Below are positions 2,740 through 35,924 of a stretch of 64,000 nt of DNA, in pieces. The stretch comes from Chaetoceros tenuissimus (lineage: Eukaryota; Bacillariophyta; Thalassiosirophyceae; Chaetocerotales; Chaetocerotaceae): contig BLLK01000022.1 of NCBI GenBank assembly GCA_021927905.1, positions 1,302,001-1,366,000 of the forward strand. Direction: 5' to 3'. The translations under genes were made by a program, and so were the position numbers. The notes under the pieces were generated by a model. The model saw only the letters and a list, made by a program, of their open reading frames with translations, was not told where the DNA came from and did no database searches. The first letter of the stretch is position 1; every line of letters begins with the position of its first letter.

Positions 2740-2838
2740 TTGATAATCTTTCAAAAATGCACCAAAGTGATTTTATGTCGACTCTGAAGTCTGAACATTG
2801 TGTTATTCACATGCTCGTTCCTGTTTATTTCCGCATGC

Positions 2839-4854: not shown

Positions 4855-7180
4855 TTATTGCTTCATGCAATCATGATGACAGTTCGCACGACACTCTGGA
4901 TCATTGATACCCTCCATACAGTTCACAAAGTCGTCGATAGTCAAAGAAGTATTCATACAAGCTCCTGCACTACAGTTGCTCATACAGTCCTTGCATGTAT
5001 CACATTTGCCCGCTGCCAAGTCAGCTGCATTACAAATGAAACACTTCTCATCACCCTCTGCCCAGTCAGGATTGTAAGTACATGGTGAATCTTGCTGTGG
5101 CTTACATCCGCATCCATTTGGAACAGCAGTTCTACTGATCTCAACTCCTCCACAGACATTTCCACTACCCTCAAACGCTGGAAAGTGACTGTTCTGCATT
5201 GCACACTCTTGGTTATTACCTGGACCACTGCGACAGTTGTTCACATTATTGAACTCACAACAGTCGGTAGCTGAAGTATCACAGAAACCACAGTTACAGT
5301 CGATACACATGAGCACTGGAGAAGTCTGACAGTATGTACCCTCTGGACATGCATCGCAAGGGTTCTCCGGAGTAGTACAAGTACAGTCAGACTTCATCAT
5401 GGTGCCCTCTGGACAAGGCTCAGGTGGACAAATAGTCTGCCAAGTTGGCTGATCGACAACATCTCCAGTAATTGGAAGCTGACCGTCAGTACCTGGCTCA
5501 CGACAGTATCCAAGGAACTGACTCTGTTTGAAAAGTCCGATACGCTTCTGCTTGTTGTTCTTGTTGAAGTACTTCTCCTCGAACTTGTAGCGATGACCGT
5601 AGAACTCCTTGTGCATGGAATGGCAAAGTTCAAGAGTTTTAGGTGGAAGACTTGGGTTGTCATATGGACACTTCTGAGGATCTCCACAAATCTCCTGGTA
5701 GTGCATAGCATTAGTAATTACAAGAAGTGGATCTGAAATGGCATCATCACCAACTTCAGCAACGCATGCATCACCTGAGTCGAACGCATATCTACAACGA
5801 TCAAGCTCCTGATATCCAGCATTGTTTGCAAAGTAATATGCAAGGAACCCACTAATACCCATACCTCCCTTGAAGTTGTGATATCCTTGCCCATTCCACC
5901 CAGTAGCTGGATCGAAAGGAGTATTCACATACGCATTCACAATGTTGTTAAACTCCTCCTCAGATGGCTTCACAATCAAGAAGCTAGTATCAACTCCCTG
6001 TCCTCCAGTGGATGGATCAGGTGCAGTCTTGACGTAGTACCCCTTCAATGCAGGATCTGCAAGAAGCGTATCAATCTCGGTGGTGATTGGATTGAGCTGA
6101 AGAGTATCAAAAGAAAACAACACCACAGCTGGATGGGTAACCATGTTCCAGATGTTCAACTTCATAGAGTCTCTGATTCCTACATCACTCTCGATGTTCT
6201 CGACGATATATGGCTGAGTATCATACAACATAGTCTCGATGATCGGATGTCCAAGAAGCTCAACATTGTAGTCCATGGACTGGAACAACTTGGTTCTATC
6301 ATACATATCACCATATGTACCTTGTATAGGACAAATGTTTGCCATAGGGTGAATCAATGCATGCCTGTACAATAGTAGGTAATGAAAGAACATCAGCAAT
6401 GAATGAGAAAACAAACTCCCAAAGATATCTCACGTCAAACACATACACTTACATTTGATATCCAAGATCAGTCGCTAGCTTTCTCTGAGTATCGGAAGCA
6501 TTCTTGTTCTCCTTCAATGCTCTTGCTACAGCGTACTCATGTTTCTCACAGATATTAGTCTTCAATACTGCAGCTTGCTCATACAAAACTGCTCCCATAT
6601 CAGGAGCCATACCGTTGTTTGGATACCACTCTGCACATGCAGTCAAAGCTACAGTATATGCAATGGTACCAGCATCCTCGGTACTAACACTCAACAAAGC
6701 TCTCTCTTCGTCATAGCTTTCTGGAGGGAAGATATCGAGAAGTTCCTTTTGATTCCCATCCAAAGGTTTTTCGTCAAGGCCATCTGGACGTGGAGGAACA
6801 ATCTCAAAGTTTCCATCCACTCCAATGGGAGGGATTGGGGTAAGATCTGTGATAATGTAAGCAGGTTCCTTGTTAGCCTCTACAGAGTCACTAGGATATG
6901 CAACATCATCAGGAGCAGCTGGAGGGTAATCAGTGTAGCAAGGGTCATCGACAGCAGATGCAAGAAGACGCATCATGTAGTCGGTGAAGGAAGAATCTTT
7001 GTTATTACTTTCAACATCTGCAGCGAGTCTTCTTCCTTGCTGCTCACATTTCAAGCTTCTCTGTGCAGTAATGCTCAAGGAGTTGTTGTATGCAAGGAAT
7101 GCACATCCAAGGAGACCTATTGCAGCAACACGTTTGCCCTTGGAGCTAGTAGAGCCTTCTTTTGTTCGACGAGATAACAT
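4855..7180 (-). CDS. GT8-like glycosyltransferase with Cys-rich tail, copy 2
   Basis: Exons 7180-6453 and 6364-4855 are joined by an 88-nt intron in the same place as copy 1, giving about 745 residues. Exon 2 encodes a protein identical to copy 1. In the conserved part of exon 1 the only residue change seen is Ala to Val in LLS-A/V-STEDAG. The first 60 residues differ (start MLSRRTKEGS, hydrophobic stretch AAIGLLGCAFLAY), but the same basic-plus-hydrophobic anchor pattern is kept. The SFD variant of the DxD motif and the Cys-rich tail are as in copy 1. The last codons differ only synonymously (AAG CAA against AAA CAG). UTR and upstream sequences are unrelated. Recent gene conversion or strong homogenisation of an older duplicate is inferred. 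Confidence 0.72.
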
Positions 7181-7778
7181 ATCTTATTCCAGTTTGAGTG
7201 ATTATGAGTAAAGGAATGTGAATGAAGTTGGTTCCTCTACAACAAAAAGGAAGGAATGCAGCTCCGAAGCTCGATTGAATTATCTTTTTTGGGTTTTCTC
7301 GATGACTTCTTGTGCCAAAAATGGGACCAAAGTATCATCTTCTCGTTGTCTTGCCTAGGATCTAGTATATTTACTACGTACGTATAGATGGAGTCATTTA
7401 TCACTTTTTCAAGCAACTATGGATTGTAATTAAATGTGTACCTGAAAATAGTTTATCCTTCGCGATTCAAACTCTAAATGACAAAAGTTTCACTGGTAAC
7501 TAATACTTGGTATTAATCCGCGATTATATTCACATCTTGTAGTTGGAAGGCAATTCCCAAAAGCCAAAAGATGTACAATTCCATTCTTTACGGAGTTTTC
7601 CACATTGTGAACAAATGGTCATTTCGGAGTCATTCTGATCGGCAGCTGGCATGACAACCCTTTTAGGCTATTTCTTTCTCATCGTTTGAGGTGTGGATAA
7701 ACAAGAGACCAGAAATTCCACATGGAGATTGCGTGGAGTTACAGCTTTTTTATAAAAAACATTGTTTTCATTATATAC
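7181..7778. other. intergenic, promoter side of GT8 copy 2
   Basis: About 600 bp without a plausible gene. It should contain the copy 2 promoter and the 3' UTR of the FAD oxidoreductase gene. The 46-bp repeat found upstream of copy 1 is absent. Confidence 0.5.
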
Positions 7779-16918: not shown

Positions 16919-18110
16919 ATGGTACACATCCAGGACCGATCACATACAAATGTGGTTTCGTCAAGTGATATACTTATTGTACCTTCTATTTCATTCCAGT
17001 TGTCATTGATAACAAAGAAAAGAGATAGACATAAAAAGTTATCAGAAACCAAATCCTGGCATAGTAGATTTGATTGTAACTTGCAAGCACAAAACTACAA
17101 AGACCAGAAAGACCTAGCCAAGATGATTCTTCAACTGAAACACATCATGTTGGCACATAACGATATGCTCGCTTTTCGCAGCAATGAAGGTTCAGCACCA
17201 GTAGGCAACTCGCTTCGTGTAGTCCATTCAGAACATGAGCAACTTGCTACTTTTGATACCAAGGAAGCATGTGATGCTTCAAGGAAGGAAGTTGTACACG
17301 ACAAGAAGGTATGTACTACATTTAGGATGAGGAGGAATATCGTGCCCAAAGTATTATTTCAATTTTTGTGCTCTAAACACATTCTTTTTTATTATATACT
17401 CGTAGGATAATTTTGACCACTCGAGTGCTCCAAAAGTGGTTATTCTCCCTGAAACAGATAATATGAAAAAACTAAAAAAAGAAACCAAAAAAGATCTGTT
17501 GAATTGTGGAGGAACTGGAAGCTACCATGGTGATTTTATGTCTCATATTATGCATTTCCATGCCGATGTAGAGAAAGGGAAAAGACTTCGAAAGAACTTG
17601 GAACTTGTTGAAGCTGGTGCAATTGCCGTATGGTTGCCGTTCAGATACTACTTCAAAAAGACCAAAGACGAAGATGGTAGAGGAGGTACAAGTGTAGAAG
17701 ACGTTCATGTTGCTACTGCTTTTGTAGATTGGACTATGTCTGGAATGCAGTCTACGATTGAAAGCAATCAGGATGCACTTCAATCTCTTGCGCTTGATAA
17801 ATGCACTACTAGTCTCCTACAGCATCATCGCCTTGTCGAGAAATTTTGGATTGAATCAAAGAACTCTATTCCGTCTGAAATAAGAGGATTTGCACAGGAG
17901 TACAACTCTTCCTATCCAGTGCTTACCGATGCTCGTAAGAGCGGTTGTCCTCATCGTACTATCTCCTCCTTCAATCAGAAGATGAAGCCCTCTGTTTCTA
18001 AAAGCATTGATACTGCTACAACTATCCAGTGCTTACCGATGCTCGTAAGAGCGGTTGTCCTCATCGTACTATCTCTCCTTCAATCAGAAGATGAAGCCCT
18101 CTGTTTCTAA
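16919..18110 (+). CDS. unrecognised two-exon protein with altered C-terminus
   Basis: Exon 16919-17308 joins 17406-18110 through a phase-0 intron (GTATGT...CTCGTAG), giving up to 364 residues. Translation may instead begin at an inner Met (AKMILQLKHIMLAHND), because a possible acceptor lies at about 17008. The protein is charged and mostly helical: KKLKKETKKDLLNCGG, FHADVEKGKRLRKNLELVEAG, AIAVWLPFRYYFKK. It is faintly like membrane-curvature (BAR-type) helices, but no motif proves this. The last 28 codons come from the second copy of a 110-bp tandem duplication read in another frame. With one copy the protein would end IDTALTKI. No function is assigned. Confidence 0.5.
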
Positions 18111-18131
18111 AAGCATTGATACTGCTTTGAC
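17913..18131. repeat. 110-bp tandem duplication at a gene's 3' end
   Basis: Copy 1 (17913-18022) and copy 2 (18023-18131) are near-identical; copy 2 lacks one C (ATCTCCTCC becomes ATCTCTCC) and the last bases differ. The unit length is not a multiple of three, so the second copy is read out of frame. That gives the upstream gene a new stop codon at 18108-18110. Confidence 0.9.
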
Positions 18132-18523
18132 CAAAATTTGATAGAAAGCAGTGAGATTACTTCTGTTAATTGGACGTGGGAAGCAAAAGTATTGAAGATG
18201 AGAATACAATGATGAATCGCAAAATTTCTATCACTGATAATTTGAAAGCTGATTCTTCTACAGATTTTGGCTCTTGTACCAGGATTAAGTATTGGAAAGG
18301 ACATGATACTTCTGACCTCGTCAATTGTCCACGGCAGTGCGCTAGTGTCAAAGAAGGTGGTCGTGATTTTACCACATCTGCGAAAGCCAAGGAAAGACTC
18401 TTTGTCATGGAAAAGTTGTGGAGTTGCTTGAGTAAAGTGCCCCTCAGATCGGGGGGTGAGGAGATTGTTTTTGATGTTTCTTCTAGGGGAAATATTACTG
18501 CAAACTCTTTGACTCAGGGGAAC

Positions 18524-21500
18524 ATGCCTCTTCGTCGTAGTGGCAGTAGAATTTTCTCTTTATTCCCTCAAAATCTTTCAAAGCTTTTGGTTTTGACATT
18601 GTGCTTTTCTCTTTTGTTGAGTCCAACGTGTGAGGCTTCGTTTGTCGACAGAAAAGGTTCTATTTTGGAAAAAGTGGATGTCGACAGATCTTCCAATTTG
18701 AAAGAAATGAACGTGAAAGCAGAAAAGGTATGATACTTAGTTGTAGAAGCGACTCTTCATTCATTTGATATTGCTGTCAATATATTTATCCTCAACCATG
18801 TGTCCTCATTTATTTTTAGGAAAAGCTTGGTAGTGGAATTGCGGGAGAAAAGGGTGACATGCTGTTTGATCCTCTTCGTCCAGGCTCTTCTCTGTCAGGC
18901 CTTGGAAGTCACGACCTAGATTTCTATGCCGAGAAGGATATGATGGACTACACCTTTTTTACTCCAGCTCTTTGTTTTGATACCAATCATCCTAAAAGTG
19001 AAGACAAGATCTTAAAAAAAATCAAGTCACTCTCCCTTTTAGGATGCAGATATTCCTGCTCTAATCAGAACTTCTGCTCTGCTTTTCAGTGGGACGGGAA
19101 TCACTGTCTTCTGCTTCGTGAAACAACTTCTAATGATGTCGTGAAGCTTGGAGAAGACGTTGAAATTCACACTACATGTGCTATCAGAAACCACCACGCA
19201 GGAGATGATACACTTGTATTTCGAGGAAATGTTTCTGGTGCTCTTTGCTCTGAAGCCATCACTGTGAAAGAGAAGAGGGCTATTCTACGTAAATTGGAAG
19301 ATGCTTTGTCTAGAGAAGTTGGTAATTCTATTACTGTAAAGCCTAAAAGTCCTCAAATGGAATGCGAGCTGGATTCAAAGCAAGGAATGTTTCTGTCGCT
19401 TCTTCTCCAAATGCCAATTCATGGTAACTTTGCATGGGTCGCAAGTCTGCATTCGGCATTGGCGGTGCTGCAAAATCTTCAACTCGACGACAAAGGTCCT
19501 GAGGGAGATATTAGTTTTTCCGATGTAGATTTTGTCAATAAGGAAAGATACGGAGGCTCTTCCCCGATCTTGAACAGTGACGTTATGCAAGATGAAAGTA
19601 GTATGAATAGTATCCCTTCCGTTTTGCTACAAATTGTACATCCTTTTGACAGCTCGAATCGAAAGTTGTGTGCCAAATCAAGTAGCATGCAATCTCGTTC
19701 CACTTTGATGGTGAAACCTTGTGCTGACCTTGAGAACGAACAATTGCATTGGTTCTTCTTTGATGGTATGGGTCATCTGAAACTCAGTGTGAAGCCTGAA
19801 TTTTGTCTACTTTGGCAGAGTCCTGACGGACCGCCGTTCTTTGACATCTGTAGTGAAGACCTGGGTACATCGCTGAAATTTGATATCAATAATGGAAGAC
19901 TTGAAGTAGATGCTTTTGGTTCAACATGGCTCCTAGGTATCAAGCACGAAGACAAAGGGAAATTTGCTCGCGTTCATCTCTTTCACTCAGAGAATCGAGT
20001 CGAAAGTAGAGAGCTACTTACCGAGTGGAAACTAATCCAACTGGATGGAATTTTTACGGAATCTATGGATTCGCTGTCATCCACTTCTCTTCACGAAGAC
20101 ACAGAGACTAGTCTCGATTTAGAGCAAAGCACTCATGCTTCCGATCTGGATGCACAGAACCTTAACAATGATGACGACACCAATCAGTCTTTTCAGGACG
20201 CATCTGTTATTAGTAGTCAAGAGAGAAGATTGCTTCTTGAGGATCCTGATTTTTCCTCTGGGGATATCCAGCTTGGTGTCGAGTCCTTCAACTTACTTTC
20301 TAGTTCCAAATTTGATGACTCGAAAAGAGATTGGTGTTTCAAACCAGAAAATCTCAATAGGGGATCCCGAGTACTCATGAGACCATGTGAGAGCATTAGT
20401 GTTGAGATGAAGTGGTTCTTTTTTGACTCTAATAGCCGTCTACGTCTCAGTTTCAAACCATTGCATTGTCTCCGTTACAATAATACCAAGCTCATTTTTG
20501 ACGAATGTGAAAATGATGACCTAATCCGCAACATTTTTGCCCTGGAAGGAGGAAAGATTCAAGCTGTCACATTTGCTTCGAGTAGCAAATGGCTTGTCGG
20601 TGTGAAAGAAGGAGAGAAAAAGTATAGCTATCTTCGCCTGTTCAACAAAGATAACCATAGCGATAATCAGTCCTTGGATAAATGGTTTACAATTCACGCT
20701 AGTGAGAGTCCGTCTACAGTACCATCGTTGCAACCATCATTTCTACCAAGTTCTAGTCCGTCTACCATGCCCTCGGTGTCTCCATCCAAAAGGCCTAGTC
20801 CTCAGCCTTCGCCCAGTCCCACTCATAGTCCAACTGTGATCCCAAGTCTTTCATCTGCACCGAGTGAAGTTCCATCGATTTCGCTTCTTCCTACTTTGTC
20901 CTACTTTACCCAGGCTATAATGATTTTAGAGTTGACAGGAATTACCGAGTTGACTCAGGATATCGAAGATGCCATCAAAGCAGGTATCAGGAATGCTTAT
21001 GCACCTATCGGAATAAGCGAGATTGTACTAACTGTTGTCTCTTCCTCATCAAGATTTCTATCTACAAAGAGAAAAAGAGAACTTGTTTCTCATTTAAAAG
21101 TTTCAGCTGCAATAAATTTAAAACTTGATGGAGAAAGTGCAACAGGTGCGGACAAATTGGATGATGTAGCTGATGGGGTTCTTCAAGAATTGAAGGAGAA
21201 TGGAATTGATGCAGAGGTGACAGTAAAGGTTGTACCAAGTGAAGCACCATCGGATTTCCCGTCAGATGTGCCCAGTTCAAACCCATCTTCGGAGCCGTCA
21301 TTACTTCCGTCAAGTATTCCAAGTGACATTCCTTCAGACATTCCATCTGGTAAGTGCTATCATGACTGATAATTTCCCTTTGATAATCATCTTTCATTTG
21401 ACTGAAGTAATTCTAATACTTCATATTCCAACTAAATAGACGTGCCTTCAGACGTTCCAAGCGATATTCCTTCAGACGTACCATCTGATCAACCGAGTTC

Positions 21501-24500
21501 TGTTCCGTCATCAATGCCATCAGATATTCCTTCAGACCAACCGTCAGATATTCCATCTGATCAACCGAGTTCTGTTCCGTCATCGATGCCATCAGATACT
21601 CCTTCAGACGTACCATCTGATCAACCGAGTTCTGTTCCGTCATCAATGCCATCAGATATTCCTTCAGACGTACCATCTGATCAACCGAGTTCTGTTCCGT
21701 CATCAATGCCATCAGATATTCCTTCAGACCAACCGTCAGATATTCCATCTGATCAACCGAGTTCTGTTCCGTCATCGATGCCATCAGATACTCCTTCAGA
21801 CGTACCATCTGATCAACCGAGTTCTGTTCCGTCATCAATGCCATCAGATATTCCTTCAGACGTACCATCTGATCAACCGAGTTCTGTTCCGTCATCAATG
21901 CCATCAGATATTCCTTCAGACCAACCGTCAGATATTCCATCTGATCAACCGAGTTCTGTTCCGTCATCGATGCCATCCGATATTCCTTCAGACGTTCCAT
22001 CTGATCAACCAAGTGTACTTCCGTCATCTATACCAAGTGACATTCCTTCAGACGTTCCATCTGATCAGCCCAGTTTATTACCGTCATCTGAGCCCTCAGA
22101 TATTCCGTCCAGCGAGCCATCATTGCTTCCTTCTTCAGAACCTTCTTCAATGCCTTCTTCTGAACCAAGTCTTTTGCCGTCCAGCGAGCCTTCGAGCGAA
22201 CCATCTGTATGCATTGATGAAGAAGGATGGGTTGTTGGTGGAAATTTGACCGACTCTGTGAATCAGCCATATGCAGGAATGACATGCGCCCAACTTAGTA
22301 ACTATACGAATCCTGAGCCATGGTGTAAAGCTATTATGAATCAACCTAATTCCACATATCTTGGAAAAGCCGTTGATGAAGCCTGCTGTGCATGTCATGG
22401 AAGTACTTTCAAGACAAACTTTCCATCTGGATCACCTACAGATCAACCATCTATCTCTAGTTATCCGTCAGTTGTACCAGTAGCTTCAGCTCAGCCAAGT
22501 TCTTGTGTTGATGAGCCAAATTGGTCATTCTTTGATAAAGAAGGCCACAGTCTTGGATGTGACAATATTGCTGAAAGTATCGGAAATTTAGAAGATGCAT
22601 GTAAGCAGTTTGAAGACCTTTATTTTGATGATAAAAATGTGAATTCGGCGTGCTGTGTTTGCGGAGGAGGAATGCACCAATCACGAGAGCCGAGTTCTGT
22701 ACCCACATTATCTGCGATGCCATCTTTTAATTCTTCCGCACCTAGTGTATGTGTAAATGAAGAAGATTGGGCTGTTGGAGGAAATTCAACTTATACAGGT
22801 ATGACATGTGCCGACATAAGTTCCACAAACAATATAGAGTCATGGTGTGATGCAATTCTACAGCAGTCAAATTCAACCTATAACGGAAAAGCCGTCAATG
22901 AGGCTTGTTGTGCATGTGGTGGGAGCAAATTCCAAACTATTTCTCCGTCAAGTGTACCTTCCGTAAAGCCTTCCGTCTCAAATTTTCCATCAATGGAAAA
23001 TTTTCCTTCGTCTGTGCCTTCGAGCCAACCAACTGAATGTGTTGATGAACCTAATTGGTATTTCTTCAATACTACTGGTCATCAACTTGGATGTGAAGAT
23101 TTGATTGTGAATTATACATCTGGAGTTGATATGTGTCAACGGTTCCAAGATGTTGACTCAGATGGTAAAACTGTTACAACAGCATGTTGCCTCTGTGGAG
23201 GCGGAATACATCAGTCTCGAGAGCCTAGTTTGGTTCCGACTGTATCCCAGAAACCTTCATCGGTTCCTTCTATATCAATAGAACCAACCTCGAAGCCAAG
23301 TGTATTGCCATCTATCAACCCAACATCATCAGCTCAACCTTCAAGTAGGCCATCTAGTTCTATTCCTACAATATATGATGGTAAAGCGTGTAAGTATGAT
23401 ATCGAATGCTTATCTGGTACATGTGATGTTGAACAGGGTGAGAATGTTGGAGTTTGTCAGCGTGGTGTAAGTCGATTTTACTCATTATTTTTGAACATCG
23501 TCACGCATGAAATTTAATCTCACTTTACATTTGTATCAAGATATTGACACGACCAGTGCCAACATCAGATTTTGAATTGGAACCTGGTGTCAAATATTTC
23601 TCTGAAGATAGTTCCTTTTACTTAATGTTTGAAACTGGAGGCAATCTTTTCTTAAGAAATGCCAATGACGATGACAAAATTGTATGGCAAGCTCTGGATA
23701 CAAATATTGCGTATGTTGACAACACAGCATTTTTGCAATCGAATGGAAATCTCGTCATTTATGATAGTAATCGAAATTCACTTTGGACTAGTGTGCAGGA
23801 TTTGCTCCAAGTGTGTCAAGGGAATTGTCAGGGCGATGAAAATTGCGGTCCTGGATTAATTTGTCATCAACAATCTCTTCGAAGACGGCTATCTGAAGTA
23901 AGTAAAATGACATTCACATATTTTTAGAAACAATGCCTCTTGATTAAATCCTATTTTCCAATTATAAAGACGAATAGTCCAAGTCCTTCGATGATACCAA
24001 GTGAAATGCCTTCGGATCTTCCATCGGACATACCCAGTATTCTTCCCTCGCTCATGCCTTCAGACATTCCATCAGACGTACCCAGTATTCTTCCCTCGCT
24101 CATGCCTTCAGACATTCCATCAGACGTACCCAGTAATCTTCCCTCGCTCATGCCTTCAGATCTTCCATCAGACGTACCCAGTAATCTTCCGTCTTTGCAA
24201 CCTTCACATCTCCCCTCGGACATACCTTCCTTGGAACCAAGTTTTATACCATCTACCAGCTTATCACCTTCTACTAGTTATGCGCCAACAGAAAGTAATC
24301 GCCCATCGGAAAGTATATTTCCATCAACATCACCAAGTCATTCCGTACTACCAAGTTCCAAACCCTCTTCATATCCATCTGCATCAAGTTTTCCATCCCA
24401 AATGCCATCTTTAACAAGTATTCCTGGATGCTCTGGTCTCAATGATGGTGAAACTAATTATTGTGTAGATCCTGTCTTTACCGATCAATCTCCAAGAAAC

Positions 24501-27500
24501 GAACCCTTCACAAACCTCGCTAACAAGAATGACTATCTAAACCTTAGCAGACGATTGACACTTTGTGAAGGGCATTGTGCGGACGATTCAAATTGTGATA
24601 CAGGACTCATCTGTAAGGAACAAGATCATATGGTAAAGTTGAGGGATGCTCTGGAACTAATTCTAAAGAAGGTTGGCAATATTGTACTTATCCATCCTTG
24701 GAAACAATCAATGGCGGGGATTCGGGTTTAGAAATAAGCGATATCGAGGATAGTTTTTTGAGAATTGATAATACAGGTGTGCTTAAAGTTTATAGTAAGA
24801 ACGATGGACTCATCTGGGATTCAAGCAATGGTGCAGCAAGTCAATTAAATGCCTGTGAAAGTAGTCAATGTGGGTTTGATCCACTCGTCGATATTTCAAT
24901 TACAACTGCAAGAGATATTATTTTCGCAGGAAGTTACAGTCATGTTGATTATGCTATTGATGTGGAACAGTCAGATGATTCTGGTCTTTCTGTCAAAAGC
25001 AACTGCATCAAAGTGAAAGGAACCATTTCTGAAGCATACGAGTTTGTCAGCCCTCTGCACATTAATTCAACGATGTTCATGTCATTTAAGTACGAAATCT
25101 CGTATGGTGTTAAAGCCTTTGCTTTGTGTGTCGACGATGGTGTAACAAAAAGAGTAGAAAATGATGGAAGAGTATTGTCCCATTGTCTTGCTTTGGGTGG
25201 ATCTAGTGTTTCTGAGGTTCTCACAACACATGTAACAGTAGAAGAAATAGGAGGCACCATTCTGTCGATAGATCAAAACTCCACTGAAGTAGAGTTTGAA
25301 TTATCTGGCCTCTTTCCATCTCAAGTTGGAAGGGTCAAGTACCTTGGCATTCTTCAAGTCATGAACGAAAATGTCTTCACTGATTCATATTCATTGATCG
25401 AAAATCCTTTGTTTTTTGACAAACAAGTCTCCAACAGAAGGCTTATTCAAGTCTCGAACAATTTCTGTGTTTGCAAATCAGACGAGCTTGCTTCTACCCT
25501 TGTACCCGGTCTTCATCATACCTGCAAAGCAGCTGGAGATTTTTGTACTTCTGCAAAAAATATACTTAGTGAAATTACCAAGAATGAGAACGAGCCGTGT
25601 TCAACTGCTTTAGAATGCAGATCTGGAATTTGCGGAGATGGAACTAATAAAGTGTGCTTGTCAGAGGTGAGGGTATAATTCACTACATTTATATTTCTTA
25701 TGATATCATTCTCATTACTTTTTTGTCAGGATATGACAATCAGAGAAAAGGATTTCCCAATGAGAGATCTTGAGACACCAAGTTTTATTTGTTTGCAGAA
25801 GGTACCTATGTCTTGGTCAGCTAGCAAAGCAATAGCTCAAAGTATGGGTGGAAATCTTGTATCTATCCATTGTGAACAGCAAAATACTCAAGTGAAGAAT
25901 ATGATAACTTCGAATTCATTCATCGGAGGGACTGACACTGTTAGTGAAGGTCAATGGAAATGGACTGATAATACAGAAATGGAATTTACGAATTGGAATT
26001 CTGGTGAACCAAATAATTCTTCTAACGAAGATTGTGCGATGATACTTAGTGCTACTGGAAAATGGAACGATGTGAGGTGTGGGACTGCAATTGGTAGATC
26101 AGTTTACCAATCTGATGCTCCAATTGATTTTCTTACCTGTGAACCATACTACCGTGAGTCATTTTGTATTGAATTATCTGATCTGCTTACTAGAATTCAT
26201 CCTTCTCAAATATGATATTGACTTGTTTCTATTTAGCATGTCCGTTATCAAACAACGAAAAAAAGAAAATTTGCGAGTGGGGCTGTCAAAGTGATGACGA
26301 CTGTGAGGGAGAATTAAAGTGCGATACGAATTTCGACAATACTGAGGTGGAGGGTTGTCTCGGGATTCGTCTACCAAGAGTCAGCTATTGTTATGAGGAA
26401 CCCAAAACTTCTGATATAACTTGGGAAGGTTCATATGGAGATAGAAACACGTTTGTTGGGACACAAGGCGGATCTATTGTTTCATCAAGGACTAGAATTC
26501 ATTTGTATGGAAATGTTTGGAAAGCTTACAGACTGATGGAGCCATATTCCGTGACTGGTAATACCCATGTATCATTCAAATTCAAACTAACCAAGGAGGC
26601 TGAAGGACATGCCATTTGCTTTGACGACGATTCAGAACCTGACACTTATGGAGGTTTCCAAAAGAGGTGTATTACAGTAGCAGGCACTGAATACAATGAA
26701 TGGAGTAATAATCACGTCTTCAAAACAGAAAAACTGAACACTACTAATATTGATGAGGAACCAGTTGAAGTAATCCGTCAAGTCAAAATTGGTCATTTCT
26801 TCACTCGAAAGGGAAGTAAAATCAATTTTATTGGATTCATTCAAGATAATGATGCTGATCCATATGAAGGAATTTCCAGCTTTTGGGATATCCAGTTCTA
26901 TGAAGAAATACCAGTAAGTTTTTATTGCTAAATCGTTTGTTTTAAATTATTAAACACCTGTATCTGACTCTAGTTTCGATAGAACTCATCATGGACTCTG
27001 TTTCAGATACCGCCATCCGAGAAAGATTTCAAGACACTAGAAACCACCATGACAATATTGAGCACAGCTGTTTCATATGACAAGGAACTAGAGGCTGCTC
27101 TTGTGAAGGAGTGCTTGGAATCTGATCGTAGTGGGAATTTGAAACAAAGTCTACAGCTAATTACTCCCTCTGATGTTGGAGATGCCAACACACCTCTAAG
27201 AAAAGTCAAGTGTATACGAAAAAGTCAATGTAAAGAATTTGAGCTCTATACGGATTTGAAGAAAACTGAATCTTTAATGAATACAGGAACAACTTTAACT
27301 AGAAACCAATCAAATGGCAGTTCCAATCAAAGTAGTGGTATAAGTCTATACAGAGGCCGTGTCATACGTTTTTCTAGAGATCTTGAAGTAAAATGCCCCC
27401 ACAACTACCTTGCAACTAAGTTGAAGTTAGGTGATCACCAAGATTACTTTATGATCCAGAACGACAAATGGAAAGATAAGTACATGACTGTCTGGAGGTG

Positions 27501-30500
27501 TTCCCGAGAAACTAGAATCGAATATTCAAAAGAAAACGAAGGGAACTCTATACATAGGTACTTTTATAGGAAAGATGGCCGAATTCATTCGGCATATTGT
27601 GGAGATAACATGGCTCTTGACCTTCAATCTAATAATTGTAGAAACAGGCAAAAGCTTTGGTTATGGCCAAGTCATAGCGGTCCAGCTCAACAGTTCACTT
27701 TTTTGACAAGCAAGAAGATTGAGGTAAATGGCTGTATGCTTGATGGTGGTAGCAAGTCTAGTCATTCTGAGGTTTTCGTGTGGAAAGATGAAAACAACAA
27801 TCCATGGATGTATTGGAACCAAATTCCTGTGGATAATACGAAAACAAGAGAGATATGGTGTAGTAGGCCAGATTCATCTGCTGGATTATTCATAGACAAT
27901 TACGACATCAAGGAAACGGGCCAAATCGAAAATATATCAGATGAGGCTAATTGTAATGAAGGGTATTACATTTCAGGATACAAATGTAGAGACAATCTTT
28001 GCAACAGCTTCAGTCTGATTTGTAGAAAAGTTGAGGTATGTTTTTGCATACAATTTATTTGCTCGTACATGCATCTCTTTTAAGATCTCTTTTCTACATT
28101 GATAGTTTATACCTAATTATCAAGCCAAGACGTCATTGAAAATGTACTCCAAGGCCAATGATTGGGGTGAACCTATATCAGATAATCAACTCGAGATTTA
28201 TAGTCATGCTGTCACTAATGCGTACAAGACAAAAAATGTTTGTATCAACACCGCAAACCTTGCCATTGATGGCGACGGACTTGGGTTTTCGATTGCAAAC
28301 GAAAACATTTTCTTCTACGATGCTGGTGAGTTTAAGCAGTATGCAATCAACGCCAATGGATCGATCAAGGAAGAGACTCCGCTGCCTTTTGATAGTAGCT
28401 GTGACAACGCTTCTAGTTTGAATTCTGCGTCGCAGAAACCGTCCAATTTTGGTAGCTCCAAGTGCACTGATTCCTATGGTAATGTGGGAGCCATTAGTGC
28501 CCCTTCGACTTCCGTTGACGGTATACCAAATCATGGTGCAATTGCATTTTATTATCGGGTGGATAGTTCGTCCACATGGCAACTTCGAGGAGAAATATAT
28601 GGCGAGACAGACGAGACAAAATTAGGTGAATATTCTGTGGAATTTGAAGATGAACATGATTTAAAAGCAATTTCGAGTAATTATCACATCAACTATATTA
28701 GCGATGTTTTGGTGAGTACCAGATGTTAAAGATGGGCAATTCTTTTTAATTCAGTTTATTTACCAAAACAATTGCACTCTATTTTTATATCTCCCTATAG
28801 AATGAGTGCCCTTTCCACGCGAAAAAGAATGGCACAGATTGTTACTGTCTTGATGGATACATTGCCGTCAATGCTGATAACTCATTGACCAGAAGAGTAA
28901 AAGGAAGTGATTATTGCGCACTTGCTTTTTTCTCTAGTCTTGTAATCAATAAAGTACAAGATGATAAGAGTTACATCGACATTTTGATTACAAATGATGA
29001 ACGTGGTTTTCCCATAGATGAAAATGACTCAGATTACCTTGACGATTTAAGAAATATGATACACCTACAACAGTTTAGTGAAGGATCAAATAATCCAGAA
29101 GATATTGTTCTAACCTTGAATGAGAACTTCAAAGTCTATGAAGATCCAAGTGGATCAAATACTACTGTTACTTTCATAGGTTTAAACCCAGGTAGAAAGT
29201 ACCTTGTAAACTTTGCAATTGATGAATTTGTGACTTTTCCAATCGTTCCCAGCTGTTCTTGCGAAGCGATTACTGGTCAAGATCAAACCGGCAGACCCAA
29301 AGATCTCACGATAACTCAAAGCAGAGGTCATGTACTTTTCGACTTTATTGATAATTCAAAGTGTGAAAGCGGCTTTAGTTTCTCTCGTTTTGAGGGATAT
29401 GCTGAGTTTGTTGACGATAGTAGACGTGCAACTAGTTTCACCAATGACTTCTCTTATCAAGCTCCAAAGCAATGTACATCTAGAATTACCCCCGAGATTG
29501 AGGCGAGTGACGATTTGACGGTATCCAGATTGATTGTTGGGAGTGTTTACTCTTACTGCGTCAGATCAATTCGTGAGGGCAACTACATGGATGTGACAGT
29601 TAATGCAAAAGAAATGAGAGCACTCGCATCCTCATCGGCAACGTGTAGTGTCCATAGAATTAATTGGGAATCGTCCATGATTGGTATTGTCACAACTGAT
29701 CCAGACGCTGGATCCATTGCAATTCGAGATGTTGAAGTTCGTTGGCAGCTTCTATCCGAGGAAGGAAAGGACTTGTCATGTGCAAATTGTTCTGGCATCA
29801 CAAAAACAAACAAAGGAGGTGTATTTGAAATTTATATGAAGATTGAAGACGAGCCTCTACTTTATGGCAAAAATGATCAAGATATACCAATCAAACTGTT
29901 TTTTTCAAAAACAACAAAGAGTAATGAGAATGATATCAATCATAGATTTCTATGTAACGATGGGCAAGATGTCTGTGATGAAGGTACAGGATTTGTAACG
30001 TATCTGAAACACCTCCATTTTGATACGCCATTCCATGCCTATGACGACACAAGTGTTCCTTTCACGGGGAAATTGATAGTTCATGGAACACAGTGTCCAA
30101 TTGTAGGAGCTAATGTATGTCCCCAGCATCATTCCGTAGCAGCTAGAAATAATGAGCAAAATGTCGGGAACTTATGCGTTAAAACAGATTCGAATGGAGA
30201 GTACATCGCTCCTGTTGTAATCGGCAGTGTCATCTACGGAGTTCGGATTGAATACGAAGAACATGAATTTGAGAGAACTTTTCATAATAAGTGGAATTAC
30301 GAGGCAGGGGTTCACATCACAGAGACGGGATTCTACGCAAGTAATGACTTTTATGACATGTCAAAAGCTCGCCTATTCGTCCAAGGTAAGTGCCGATTCT
30401 TTTGCATATTTATCGAAACTATTTTGATCCCTAGCTCATTATTTTATCTCAATTATTCAGTTGCTGGAGGAGATTGCAACTTGCCTCTAGGAACAGCCTT

Positions 30501-33500
30501 TCTGAAAGTTAGAGTCAAAGGTTGCGACGATGATTTACATAGTGGGGGATACTTAGAAGAGCCATTGGAACAAAACGGTTATGAACAGGTTTACAACAAT
30601 GTACCTGCTCAATTTCTAGAAGTCAACGTAGAAACTATTAAGGACGATGACGGTGATATTTCTCACCTAAAGGAATTTTTCAACGGAGAAGATCCAGTTG
30701 TGAGGTCCATCAATTTACTTTCTACTGCAGAGGAAGATGAATTGGAGGACAAACTTATAGCAGAGGAGAATGGCGGAGATACAGGAAAAGAGACCAGTGA
30801 AGTCAAAGACAAAGAGGATTACAAAGCCACCGAAGATGTTAAGGAGACTATAAGGTTCCAATACAATGGACTTTTGGAAATGGAAGTAGAAGTTCTTGGT
30901 GATGATCTCGAATGCAACGATTACCCTTCTGGCGATTTCGATTCTTTTCATGTGGTTGAATACATGTCTCTCATTGACATCAAGATCGATCTTCGTTTCA
31001 AACTCGACGATGACTTATACTGCAACATTGTTGATCCTGGTCAACACAAGCTATCCATTGTAAGCAATTTGGGTATGGATAGCAATGCCGGCTTCGATGA
31101 TTTCTATAATAGTCTCCCAAGTGATCAACAGAAAGAGTTAATTTCTGCTTGTTCGACAATTGCTCCGCCCTCCGGGAAGGCTTCTGGGCCATGCCTCTTA
31201 GACATTTATAGTGGTGAGTCAGGTTCAGGAAAAGATATAAAGTTAACTGTTGGCAGACCAAACATCAATGATCCTTATACGAAAAATGTGGATATACGTG
31301 TGATTGGTGCTGCAAATAATGTACAGCATAGAGCAGACTTTTTTATTGAAGGGCAATTCTCATTAGGAGCTGGAGACTCCTTCGCATTACCAACCCATCA
31401 ACCAATTATGGTTTTGAGAGATCCTCCTGTAAGTATTAGTTCATGTGTGTATCTTATTTTTAATAAGGGATTTATCTAAACTATTTTCTACAGGGTGGAG
31501 GTTCTTATGCTTCCTACGAAAACATTAGAACTAGTGTAAGAATTTATAAAAATCACGATAAGACAGCCAATGAAGGAAAAATGGCAATGAAGCTTGGTGT
31601 AAAATTCGAAGCAGACAGCGATTTTTGTACAGGTGGTGGTTTGGGAGCTATAGTTATTGGCTGTAAAGAAGCTGTAGGAGGTGACAATGATACTGATGGT
31701 AAAAGCTATCAGGACATTAAATCAACCAATGCCGATTCAACAAAAACCATAACAAATTCATTTTCTACAACTTGGAGTTACAAAACAAGTGATAGCCCTG
31801 ACATTGCAGGTGAAGAAAGCGATGTTTTCGTAGGTGAGTTATCTTTTATTCAAATATTTACGTAGTTTACAACTTTTTTCTGAACTCTACATTCAATTCC
31901 TTCAGTCCCAAATTTGAATGTCTTCTTTATTGAGGTATACGTTGTCAGATGGAATAATGAAACTTGCGCTGCCAAATTAGACGGGGATGAATTCCCCTCG
32001 ACAACTATTTTTGATATTAATGCAGAAACAAACAAACCAGCCTTTTCCTTCTATTCACGTCATCACATTGTAAATACAAAAATGCCTGAAATAGAGAATG
32101 CTATCGACGGCGAAGTAGACAAAGTGATGCAAGTTAGATCATCGATAGAGGATGGTGAAACAAAAGTTTGCTGTGATAAAGGTGACTTGAAAGGTTTCTG
32201 CTTTCCGACAGAAGGGACTCTACGAGTATGTAATGAAGATGATCTTGATCAAGCTATCTTCAATGCTGGTGAGCTACTTGAAGCTCTTGTGCACTGGCAA
32301 ACAATCTTAAATAGTGCTGATGACACAAAAGCACTTGCAGTCTCGGATAGTAGTTACGGTAATATTTTGAACTGGTTTGAACAGCAAGAAATGTACCAAT
32401 ATATTGAGACCACAGACTTTGAGGATGATGAAAAGAAACATATTCGTATGGAAAAGGCAATAACTGATTACTCACAACTTGCCCCAGAAAGCTTGACTGA
32501 TATGATGAACCCCTTAACTGATGCATCAAACCCATTCATCGACCCAATAGAATCCAGTGAAGAAAGCAAAAGTGCAAATAGAATACAATTCAGCGGTAGC
32601 ACTGGCAGCTATACTCTTAAGCTTGACAGATCATCTTCATCAGAGATGACGACCATGACATGCAGCGACAGTGGCTTGATGAAAGCGATGGCAATATGGC
32701 AAAAGGTAGTTAATTTTGACCCTACAGAATTTGCAAAGGAAAAGTTTACAGAAGAAACAGGAATACCACTCAAATTACAACCAATCGCAAAAAAGATTGT
32801 TAAGAAATTGAACGAAAAAATTGACAGCTACAACCAAGTGAAGAAAGATGAAGCTTTTCAGAAGGAATTGAAAGAAGAGGTGAAGAAACAGGATGAAAAA
32901 CGTGTTGACCGAATGGAGGCGATCAAGCAATTAGAAGACGAGAAAAAGCAGAAATTAGAGGATGCCACAAAGGAGAATGCAAGAATCCAAAAGGAAATTG
33001 ACGAAGCACCAGACGTAAAGACAAAGAAAGAACTAATTATTAAGAAGTTTGAGGCTGAAGCGGCCCAGCAAAAAGCACAAAATGATTTGGAGGAGGAAAG
33101 AGCTAAAAAGAAAAGAGAAAATCTAGCTAAACAATTGGCAGACGAGGAAAAAAAGGAGAAGCAAAAGAAACAACTATCCTCTACTGAAAAAGCGAAACTA
33201 CAAGATCAAATTGATAATGAAACAGACCCCAAAAAGAAGCAAGCTTTAGTAAAGAAACAATTGGAGGACTCTGGGAATACTCCACGGAATGATAAAGAGG
33301 CTAGGACTCAAAAGGAAGCAATGAAACAGAAAAGAAATGAAGAAAGAAGCAACAAAGAACTGAAAGATAGGACCCAGACTGAAATTGCCGAAGATACTGG
33401 GAAGAAAAGCAAGTGGGATTCAGGGTCATTTCTTAAAAATGCTTTGAAAAAGTTTGAGTTTGCATTTTCGGCTGGACCTATGGTTATTGCTTCAATGCAG

Positions 33501-35924
33501 GCTGGATGTAATTCAGAAACGAAGTCTGCAGCCTCTCCGGCAGATTTGGATCTTTCATTTTCAGTTTGGGGGCTTGGTTTTGATGCATATTTCAATGGAG
33601 GTAAGCATGTGATACATTAGTTTTTATGTATACATTCATTTTTATCCAACCATAATTCTATCTTAGAATTCCAAGCTGTAATCACGCATGAGTCCTTCGT
33701 AACTGATAGCGAAGGAGAAGAATCAAGCGTATCTTTCACTTTATCTGACCCAGATATAGATGACGAATTCGTCGTTGATATTTACTACGATGAGTACTAC
33801 GGAACCTTTATCTTCAACACTGTTGCTGGTAGAAGCAAGTGTGTGTGGGAAGAAGGGACTGGGAGAAGTGAAGATCCATCACTGATTTCAGTCAACTCCG
33901 CTTCCTCCTTCATCTACCCAGACGAAAAGATGGTTTTTGAGGTTGAAATGAAGAACATAGGACGAACAAGTGACAGCTTCTTCTATGTAGCACAAGAAGC
34001 AACAGGCAGGAACTTGGATGTCAAACTTGGTGGTACCGGTATCGTAAATGAAAATGGTATTGTCATTCAACTATACAAAGATAAGCCCGTTATGAAGCAA
34101 ATTATAATATCTCGAGGTCTACTTGCCAAAGGAGTAGAAGGATATGAGTTTCCTGCACTCCAATTAACATTGAAAAGTAAATGTGAAGCTGACATGAATA
34201 CACGACAAAATACAAAGAATGGAATGTACCGGACAATTCCCCTATTCAATCATGTCAATGAAGCTGGAGAAGAAGTTTTAAGATGGATCAAACCTTGCCC
34301 AAAGATATATTGGAGCGGAGACTTGAAGCGTGAAAGGACATTTCTCATAAATAAGAACACCAAGGATGAACATCCTGAGGGACTCTCAATTTTAAGAGTT
34401 CAGATTTTTAATCCTCTCGCAAGTCAAGGGCAAAAAATTGCAGATATTGCAGCAGAGGGAAACTTGGAAAACATCTTCCTGCGTTTTAGAAAGAAAGGTG
34501 ATGTTGTCTGGGAAAAAGCTCAAGCAGCTACTCCTTCAGGTGATTTACTAGAAATGGACTACTTGGATCCTGATTTGGCGGCAGAGGAAGATAACTATGG
34601 CTTTGCACCTCTCTTGTGGAGATTAGATAACGTACAGCAAGGTCATCTTGAAATAATGATTGAAACAAAATGTGAAGCCCCCGATGGAGCTCCTGAAGAG
34701 GTGGAAAAATTCCGTGAAGAAATCATATCTGGTGTGTATGATTTTGTTCCACCAGAACAATATGGAAGAAGAGCTTTGCCTCTCAGGCATGATGTAATCT
34801 TTGGCGAGGAAATGCAAGTTCTATTTACTGAGAGTCTCTGGTGCGAAAAGCCACAATTATTTACAATTGAGATCACGTTGGTTGGGACAGATATTACACT
34901 GTCGAATAAAAATGGTCGTCTTCAGGTCAATTGTCGCGAGAATATACTTGGCTTTCATTTGAAAAACATGCTTCCCGAAGATGTTGCTGGTAAAGAATTT
35001 AGAGTCGTCATTGATGGAGTTCAAGACAAGGCTCGCAATGAAGTTGAAAATTCCATTATCTTTAAAAAGAGATTTGCTAATCTTGACTTAGATGGAGCTT
35101 CAACCACATTTAAATTCACTATTACAAATACAACCTGTACAGAAGAGGGTGTTGAAGCACAATCCGAGGGAGTTAGAAGTGAAATTGCATCTCGAATTGG
35201 GTTGGAATCAGCTGAAAGGATTCAGATTCATAATTTACTCTGCCTCGATGGCTCAACTATTATTGCCGATGCAGAAATTGTCCCCGAGGAGCAAGAAACG
35301 AGTCGCAGAAAGCTCAGTAACCTCATCTCACAGGAATCCAGCAAGAATACGTATGGGCTTGTGGTTGATTTGAAGAATCATGTAGAGAACAGGCCTGGTT
35401 TGGATACTGGATCAAGAGTTCTAAAGGAATCATCAGACATTAAATCTTTTTCTGTTAGTGCCATTGGAATCAAACCATCAGAGAAAGACAAGTTGAAATT
35501 TAGTAGCAGCAAGGATGAGCTACTAGAAGAAAATGCAATGAGATCATATAATCCCCAAGAGCAGCTTGTGAGTAACATAGAAGCAAAACATGAAAAAGAT
35601 TGGAGAGATGATAAAGAAGAGGTGGTTTCGAAACTAGCTCATCTGGAGGCAAGACTCTTACAAGAAAAGACAAACGAAGAAAACAAATTGGAATTGAAAC
35701 TTGCTCAAATGCAAGATAGACTCTTAAAGGAAAAGGAAAGTGAAAAAGAAGCAATGAAGGAAATGTTTTTCTTCAAGGAAAAGGAAGGTGAAGAAGAAAA
35801 ATTAGATAGAATCTTGAGGGAAAAAGAAGAAATGAAGGACATGCTCCTTGCACAAGGGTTGATTATGTTGGTCATTGGCTCCCTAGCAGCCTTCGCAGTC
35901 AATCATATTAATAGTAGAAAATAA
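18524..35924 (+). CDS. giant multi-lectin surface protein, 14 exons, about 5,465 residues
   Basis: Exons: 18524-18727, 18820-21349, 21440-23466, 23541-23897, 23970-25666, 25730-26153, 26237-26913, 27007-28035, 28106-28711, 28801-30385, 30461-31428, 31494-31833, 31906-33600, 33667-35924; introns are 63-93 nt. ATG 18524 starts a signal peptide ([18 protein letters not shown]); the frame is open back to ATG 18209. Modules by approximate residue: PAN/apple-like 113-191; two beta-trefoil (ricin-B-like, [12 protein letters not shown] and [12 protein letters not shown]) 333-695; an alpha/beta domain 762-873; PSD repeats to 1165; four Cys-rich modules to 1510; B-lectin (SNGNLVIYD) in exon 4; C-type lectin in exon 6 with EPN and WND; a third trefoil-like stretch in exon 8; FN3-like and prealbumin-like ([14 protein letters not shown]) in exon 10; coiled coil 4448-4640; C-terminal anchor [15 protein letters not shown] 1-nt frame break lies near 24630. 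A cell-wall or adhesion role is inferred. Confidence 0.8.
21440..22206 (+). repeat. PSD/PSS coding repeat with 192-bp higher-order period
   Basis: The 4-codon unit PSxx (mostly [20 protein letters not shown]) is arranged in a 64-codon super-unit. The marker CCTTCAGACCAACC recurs at 21529, 21721 and 21913, exactly 192 bp apart. Two super-units appear essentially perfect. The array lies in exon 3 of the giant gene and encodes an extended Ser/Pro/Asp stalk that is a likely O-glycosylation or phosphorylation target (inference). Confidence 0.9.
22207..23220 (+). repeat. four alternating Cys-rich modules (A-B-A-B)
   Basis: Within exon 3 of the giant gene, modules of about 60 residues alternate. 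Type A (from about 22209 and 22750) begins C-V/I-x-E-E-x-W and ends CCACxG. Type B (from about 22503 and 23038) begins CVDEPNW, has LGC inside, and ends CCVCGG or CCLCGG. PS-rich linkers of 15-30 residues separate them. The ordered A-B-A-B layout points to duplication of an A-B pair. Confidence 0.8.
24005..24200 (+). repeat. 48-bp coding repeat (PSDxPSDVPSxLPSLM)
   Basis: Four 48-bp units in exon 5 of the giant gene encode a 16-residue unit, [16 protein letters not shown], with small changes (ILPS/NLPS, DIPS/DLPS). This is a second, independently amplified PSD array, different in period from the 192-bp array in exon 3. Confidence 0.85.

What the first reader, a model, noticed from the sequence alone, without database searches (positions are those of the whole stretch)
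18524..35924. Giant membrane-anchored protein combining at least four lectin-type folds
Fourteen exons splice in phase into one protein of about 5,465 residues with a signal peptide, PAN-like, beta-trefoil, B-lectin and C-type lectin modules, two different PSD-repeat stalks, a coiled coil and a C-terminal membrane anchor. This is seen in the sequence. PSD/PSS-rich secreted proteins and adhesins are known in diatoms, but this combination is not one I recognise. A role in cell-cell recognition, adhesion or wall organisation is inference.
Basis: partly seen in the sequence, partly recalled or inferred. Interest (0 to 1): 0.8.

Follow-up and report, generated by a model that had tools for sequence, protein, structure and literature searches.

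The report
Giant diatom lectin-adhesin gene family
A diatom gene encodes a roughly 5,500-residue protein predicted to be surface-anchored and to carry several sugar-binding modules; it is one of about 25 related giant genes that share a conserved base and carry different sugar-binding heads, which suggests a system for sticking to or recognising sugar-coated surfaces.

Summary
One collinear gene at 18,212/18,524-35,924 encodes about 5,470-5,570 residues: hydrophobic N-terminus, PAN-like and trefoil-like modules, two PS(D)-repeat stalks, a B-lectin domain, a C-type lectin domain with intact EPN and WND motifs, a large conserved beta-rich core, a coiled-coil-like segment and a C-terminal membrane helix. 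Module order is conserved in six other copies, which supports a single gene.

The start codon at 18,524 is not shared by the nearest copy. PAN and trefoil support is weak.

The main new finding is that this is one of about 25 copies in the same genome (very likely Chaetoceros tenuissimus). The C-terminal chassis is conserved and has no Pfam, PDB, prokaryotic or viral relative that I could find. The heads differ: B-lectin; C-type lectins with EPN, NPD or QPD motifs; F5/8C; Kringle; ricin-B. Neighbouring copies are mosaics.

Best reading: a family of membrane-tethered glycan-binding adhesins with diversified specificity. Adhesion or recognition is inferred. Partners, expression and presence in other diatoms are untested.

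The parts
18212..18727 (+). Exon 1: hydrophobic N-terminal segment ([19 protein letters not shown]; signal peptide or signal anchor).
   Evidence: Frame shared with the paralogue at C16:1.236M, including a 12-nt in-frame indel; ATG 18,524 is Val there
18820..21349 (+). Exon 2: PAN-like module (about 18,919-19,152), two trefoil-like modules (19,618-20,058; 20,284-20,703), PS-rich linker, further unnamed domain
   Evidence: PAN_1 E 0.02-0.06 and Ricin_B E 0.002 in the window; sisters PAN 2.4e-4, Ricin_B 5.5e-7
21440..23466 (+). Exon 3: PSD-repeat stalk (TRF array 21,463-22,106) followed by four Cys-rich domains (..ACCxCGGG..) separated by PS linkers
   Evidence: TRF; PT repeat E 1.2e-30; Cys domain aligned in 12 segments (A6), no Pfam or PDB match
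23541..23897 (+). Exon 4: B-lectin domain (QSNGNLVIY close to QxDxNxVxY)
   Evidence: Pfam B_lectin E 9e-7, 29.8 bits vs cut-off 32.4; PDB garlic agglutinin and pyocin L1
23970..25666 (+). Exon 5: second PSD stalk (24,006-24,190), CxxxC...CxxGLxC motif, B-lectin-like strand, and a beta-rich domain homologous to the exon 7 domain. One-base frameshift near 24,631; no intron at 24,613-24,671
   Evidence: Paralogues read straight through; TRF; homology to the exon 7 domain
25730..26153 (+). Exon 6: C-type lectin domain with EPN and WND motifs (predicted Ca2+-dependent, Man/GlcNAc-type)
   Evidence: Pfam Lectin_C E 6e-16; PDB mannose receptors and LY75; motif read directly
26237..26913 (+). Exon 7: WAP-like Cys motif plus 'GNxWKAY...AEGHAIC' beta-rich domain (second copy of the domain in exon 5)
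   Evidence: A5/A7 alignments of paralogues; no Pfam, PDB or GTDB relative
27007..28035 (+). Exon 8: fast-diverging domain, family-specific
   Evidence: 23-48% identity among copies; pS 0.58 between the two nearest copies, against 0.25-0.30 in the flanking exons
28106..30385 (+). Exons 9-10 (28,106-28,711; 28,801-30,385): start of the conserved chassis
   Evidence: About 24 homologous loci in the genome; A1 alignment
30386..30460 (+).
   Evidence: GTAAGT...TTATTCAG; paralogues show gaps of about 67-78 nt here, some not multiples of 3
30461..33600 (+). Exons 11-13 (30,461-31,428; 31,494-31,833; 31,906-33,600): chassis, including the [10 protein letters not shown] block and a charged helical segment
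   Evidence: About 24 homologous loci
33667..35924 (+). Exon 14: conserved beta-rich chassis end, coiled-coil-like segment 35,580-35,843, transmembrane helix 35,844-35,900, 7-residue tail 35,901-35,921, stop 35,922-35,924
   Evidence: A2 alignment, about 20 or more loci

Best explanation
This is one gene of a family of about 25 giant genes in the same diatom. Each encodes a secreted-side, C-terminally membrane-anchored adhesin or recognition protein. Shown by sequence: a shared chassis of roughly 2,400 residues with no nameable domain, ending in a coiled-coil-like segment, a single membrane helix and a very short tail; PS(D)-repeat linkers; and heads that differ between copies but belong mostly to carbohydrate-binding families. 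Inferred: the coiled coil oligomerises the chassis at the membrane; the stalks push the heads through the cell coat; and multivalent lectin binding holds or discriminates glycans on another cell, on the organism's own wall, or on bacteria or viruses. In this copy the C-type lectin (Ca2+-dependent, EPN type, Man/GlcNAc class) and the B-lectin are the likeliest binding sites. With only seven residues after the helix, it more likely acts as a tether than as a signalling receptor. Head diversity arises by duplication, gene conversion and module replacement.
For: Collinear modules in seven copies. About 25 loci with chassis exons. Lectin_C and B_lectin matches. Sister heads carry F5/8C up to E 2.7e-17, Kringle 1.1e-10, Lectin_C 6.8e-13 and Ricin_B 3.4e-6. 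CTL specificity motifs differ between copies: EPN (window), NPD (nearest copy), QPD (C13 copy); EPN/QPD predict mannose/galactose binding in animal lectins (PMC5379193). Most chassis exons are under purifying constraint (pN/pS about 0.2-0.3 in exons 10 and 14), while the CTL exon is looser (0.64-0.68). Mosaic ancestry: W+C33 rejected in exon 10, p 4e-53; W+C16b rejected in exon 11, p 6e-4. TM helix and short tail.
Against: No expression, localisation or binding data. Structure predictions with only two sequences failed (pLDDT 34 and 36), so trefoil and PAN folds rest on weak profile scores. The window sequence has a one-base frameshift, so this copy could be non-functional unless that is an assembly error. 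The N-terminal hydrophobic segment sits about 120 residues in if translation starts at 18,212. The chassis function is unknown.
Confidence: 0.6

Rival explanations
1. Structural cell-wall or cell-coat protein: the giant chassis and PSD stalks are a tether between plasma membrane, organic casing and silica, and the lectin heads bind the cell's own wall polysaccharides.
For: PSD/PT repeats and Cys-rich ACCxCGGG domains; short tail without a signalling domain.
Against: About 25 copies with swapped heads and three different CTL sugar motifs are more than a fixed wall linker would seem to need.
Confidence: 0.25
2. Gamete or mating recognition family: copies are switched on in the sexual phase and mediate sperm-egg or cell-cell binding.
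For: Head diversification and gene conversion. Lectin-type gamete receptors are inferred in brown algae (PMC4700764). A transmembrane lectin-like family (M2) is a sex marker in raphid diatoms (PMC12618581).
Against: M2 is reported absent from centric diatoms. No expression data here; one or a few genes, not about 25, would be the usual expectation.
Confidence: 0.15
3. This locus is a decaying pseudogene of the family: a frameshift has broken it.
For: One-base frameshift near 24,631 relative to paralogues.
Against: All other frames are open over 17 kb. Low pN/pS in several exons shows past constraint but does not date the frameshift. The assembly is a Nanopore/Illumina hybrid (PMC8613185), in which a single-base error is plausible.
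Confidence: 0.15
4. Several neighbouring genes rather than one giant gene.
For: No RNA evidence available here.
Against: Order of modules identical in seven copies on five contigs; introns in phase at every junction; no internal signal-peptide or TM segment other than the two ends.
Confidence: 0.05

Closest known systems
Animal multi-CRD mannose receptor family (MRC1, MRC2, LY75, PLA2R)
   Same: Large type I-like surface proteins with C-type lectin and ricin-type trefoil modules; the window CTL's best PDB hits are these
   Different: Here one CTL, plus B-lectin, PAN-like, PSD stalks, an unrelated chassis and a coiled coil; far longer, with almost no cytoplasmic tail; no overall homology
Diatom adhesive-trail proteins with the GDPH domain and vWD (Amphora, Seminavis)
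   Same: Large secreted diatom proteins tied to adhesion
   Different: No GDPH string and no vWD match in Pfam; lectin modules and a TM anchor instead
M2 transmembrane lectin-like sex-marker family of raphid diatoms (PMC12618581)
   Same: Transmembrane, lectin-like, diatom
   Different: Reported as restricted to raphid pennates; sequence not available here for comparison
Stramenopile/green-algal mastigoneme proteins (OCM3 in PDB 9ufe; MST1)
   Same: Profile A3 hits OCM3, but only through the PS-rich repeat
   Different: No EGF match in Pfam and no match outside the repeat; compositional resemblance only

Membership tests
C-type lectin domain (CTLD) proteins | Lectin_C profile above curated cut-off | tested here: met
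   59.5 bits vs 22.6; PDB chains to 3e-32
C-type lectin domain (CTLD) proteins | Ca2+ site 2 motifs (EPN/QPD and WND) | tested here: met
   EPN at [10 protein letters not shown] and KWNDVRC in the window
B-lectin (monocot mannose-binding) domain | B_lectin profile above curated cut-off | tested here: not met
   29.8 vs 32.4 bits, E 9e-7; PDB bulb lectins E about 1e-5: homology likely, formal cut-off missed
B-lectin (monocot mannose-binding) domain | QxDxNxVxY mannose motif | tested here: inconclusive
   One near match, QSNGNLVIY (Asn for Asp); second repeat degenerate
Ricin-type beta-trefoil | Ricin_B_lectin profile above cut-off in the window | tested here: not met
   18.7 vs 29 bits; best aligned segment E 5.5e-7; AF2 model pLDDT 34, uninformative
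PAN/Apple domain | PAN_1 profile above cut-off | tested here: not met
   13.6-15.2 vs 21.4 bits; best sister 21.3
Diatom GDPH/vWD adhesive proteins | vWD domain and GDPH motif | tested here: not met
   No vWD hit; no GDPH string
Raphid diatom M2 sex-marker family | Sequence homology to M2 | not testable with these tools
   M2 sequences not held; paper says absent in centrics
Single-pass membrane-anchored adhesin | Signal sequence and C-terminal TM helix | tested here: inconclusive
   Only two hydrophobic segments, at the two ends; the N-terminal one may lie about 120 residues in, but some sister copies begin with clear signal-peptide-like starts

The most novel reading that the evidence does not exclude
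A diatom 'conserved chassis, variable head' surface recognition repertoire: about 25 giant membrane-tethered proteins with one unnamed chassis and exchangeable glycan-binding modules, diversified by gene conversion and by changes of C-type-lectin specificity motifs. It would serve to discriminate self, mates, bacteria or viruses by glycan pattern.
Probability: 0.35. Interest if true: 0.8.

Novelty: new variant of a known kind. Interest (0 to 1): 0.6.

Why it matters
How single-celled planktonic diatoms recognise mates, bacteria and viruses at the molecular level is largely open, and few candidate surface receptors are known. A large family with a common chassis and varied sugar-binding heads gives a concrete, testable candidate set, and each head's predicted sugar class can be assayed on glycan arrays. 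The chassis is also a large conserved block with no Pfam, PDB, prokaryotic or viral relative found here.

Tried and rejected
- AlphaFold2 on the second trefoil and on the exon 7 domain, each with two window sequences: mean pLDDT 34 and 36, all-beta but not usable. No fold search was run on them because low-confidence models give meaningless matches.
- Relatives of the chassis: PDB profiles A1 and A2 (one chance-level hit, E 0.14), IMG/VR, GTDB genomes: none. These scans need short conserved peptides, so very distant relatives could be missed.
- Exon 7-type domain: PDB, Pfam, GTDB: none. Cys-rich domain: PDB, Pfam, IMG/VR: none.
- The OCM3 mastigoneme hit covers only the PS-rich repeat and was rejected as compositional.
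- A first dN/dS for the second half of exon 5 read the wrong frame (e6 row) and was redone: pN/pS 0.39. The apparent 0.9 is withdrawn.
- Literature searches found no description of this family; only open-licence papers are held.

Full report
Where it is. The window is G000:C16:1,302,001-1,366,000 of a 41,027,912-base genome in 68 contigs. Total size and the largest contig seen (C34, 4,456,483 bases) match the published assembly of the centric diatom Chaetoceros tenuissimus NIES-3715 (41.0 Mb, largest scaffold 4.46 Mb, GC 38.9%; PMC8613185). The identification is by these numbers, not by name.

Gene model. Same-strand open frames join through short GT..AG introns in matching phase. At 24,613-24,671 the nearest paralogue and five other copies read straight through ([16 protein letters not shown]... 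in the nearest copy against [15 protein letters not shown]... in the window), so there is no intron but a one-base frameshift in the window near 24,631. It may be an error of the Nanopore/Illumina hybrid assembly or a real lesion. The result is 14 exons and 5,466 residues from ATG 18,524 (the frameshifted codon read as unknown). That ATG is GTT in the nearest copy, while the frame is shared back to ATG 18,212, including a 12-nt in-frame indel, so the protein may have about 5,570 residues.

One gene? RNA is not available here. The best evidence is that six other copies, on contigs C16 (two), C44, C33, C48 and C5, keep the same modules in the same order, and that hydrophobic segments occur only at the two ends.

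Modules. The C-type lectin is secure (59.5 bits against a cut-off of 22.6; PDB mannose receptors and LY75) and has the EPN and WND calcium/sugar motifs. The B-lectin is just under the curated cut-off but matches bulb lectins and L-type pyocins in the PDB. The trefoil is weak in the window and better in sisters (8 of 12 aligned segments, best 5.5e-7). The PAN is weak. Four Cys-rich ACCxCGGG domains and two copies of a GNxWKAY...AEGHAIC beta-rich domain have no convincing match in Pfam or PDB. Two PS(D) arrays are tandem repeats. The C-terminus has an 88-residue segment with 43% E+K, a membrane helix at 35,844-35,900 and a 7-residue tail.

A family. Chassis exons match about 24 further loci in the same genome; the matches are graded, from 88% to about 30% identity. 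The counts are lower bounds and some loci may be incomplete. The heads differ. The seven-copy clade of the window has B-lectin and two GNxWKAY domains. C-type lectins occur in the window copy, the nearest copy (two stretches), the C13:31k copy and, by position, the C13:590k copy. Other copies carry F5/8C domains (up to 2.7e-17), a Kringle (1.1e-10) and ricin-B. The CTL sugar motif is EPN in the window, NPD in the nearest copy and QPD in the C13 copy. In animal lectins EPN and QPD go with mannose and galactose (PMC5379193, abstract seen), so different specificities are predicted but not shown.

Mosaic evolution. Between the window copy and the copy 84 kb away, synonymous divergence is low in exon 1, the CTL exon, its neighbours, exons 9-10 and the last part of exon 14 (dS about 0.16-0.5), but high to saturated in the Cys domains, exon 8, and exons 11 to early 14. 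Trees disagree accordingly. In exon 10 the two copies group with 100/100 support, and grouping the window copy with C33 is rejected (p 4e-53). In exon 11 grouping the two neighbours is rejected (p 6e-4), and in early exon 13 weakly (p 0.019). Gene conversion between paralogues is the simplest account. The groups were named after identities had been seen, so these p-values are somewhat favourable. Constraint is strong in exons 7 and 10 (pN/pS 0.23, 0.20) and looser in the CTL exon (0.64-0.68); no exon shows pN/pS above 1, so positive selection is not shown.

Function. With several sugar-binding heads, long stalks, a coiled-coil-like segment, a membrane anchor and almost no cytoplasmic tail, a tethered multivalent adhesin or recognition protein is the best reading (about 0.6). 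A structural wall linker, a mating protein and a decayed copy are kept as rivals. None of localisation, expression or binding was tested.

Known kinds. It works like multi-lectin surface receptors but is not shown to be a member of any of them. GDPH/vWD adhesive proteins were tested and not met. The raphid M2 family is reported absent from centrics (PMC12618581). Seminavis is reported to have tandemly duplicated ricin-B-like lectins (PMC7335047), so lectin expansion in diatoms as such is not new; the shared giant chassis with swapped heads is the part I did not find described. Eukaryote proteomes could not be searched, so the absence of relatives elsewhere is unproven.

Noticed in passing
window 24,613-24,671: Apparent intron is really a one-base frameshift relative to all compared paralogues; could be an assembly error or a real lesion.
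   Followed up: yes
window 402-2,772 and 4,858-7,183 (- strand): Two ORF pairs with near-identical starts, apparently a tandem duplication about 4.5 kb apart.
   Followed up: no
window 17,406-18,210: The gene upstream of the giant gene is partly co-duplicated with the copy at C16:1.235M, and a stretch of its 3' part is repeated in tandem.
   Followed up: partly
G000:C50:38,556-43,528 and many places on G000:C17: At least 39 C-type lectin stretches in this diatom genome, including a regularly spaced array on C50.
   Followed up: no
G000:C16:1,239,005-1,239,286: The nearest paralogue seems to carry a second, weaker C-type lectin stretch upstream of the Cys-rich domains that align to the window.
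   Followed up: no
L043 6,820-9,300: A family copy near the end of contig C13 combines a Kringle domain (E 1.1e-10) with a ricin-B trefoil, an unusual pairing for an alga.
   Followed up: no
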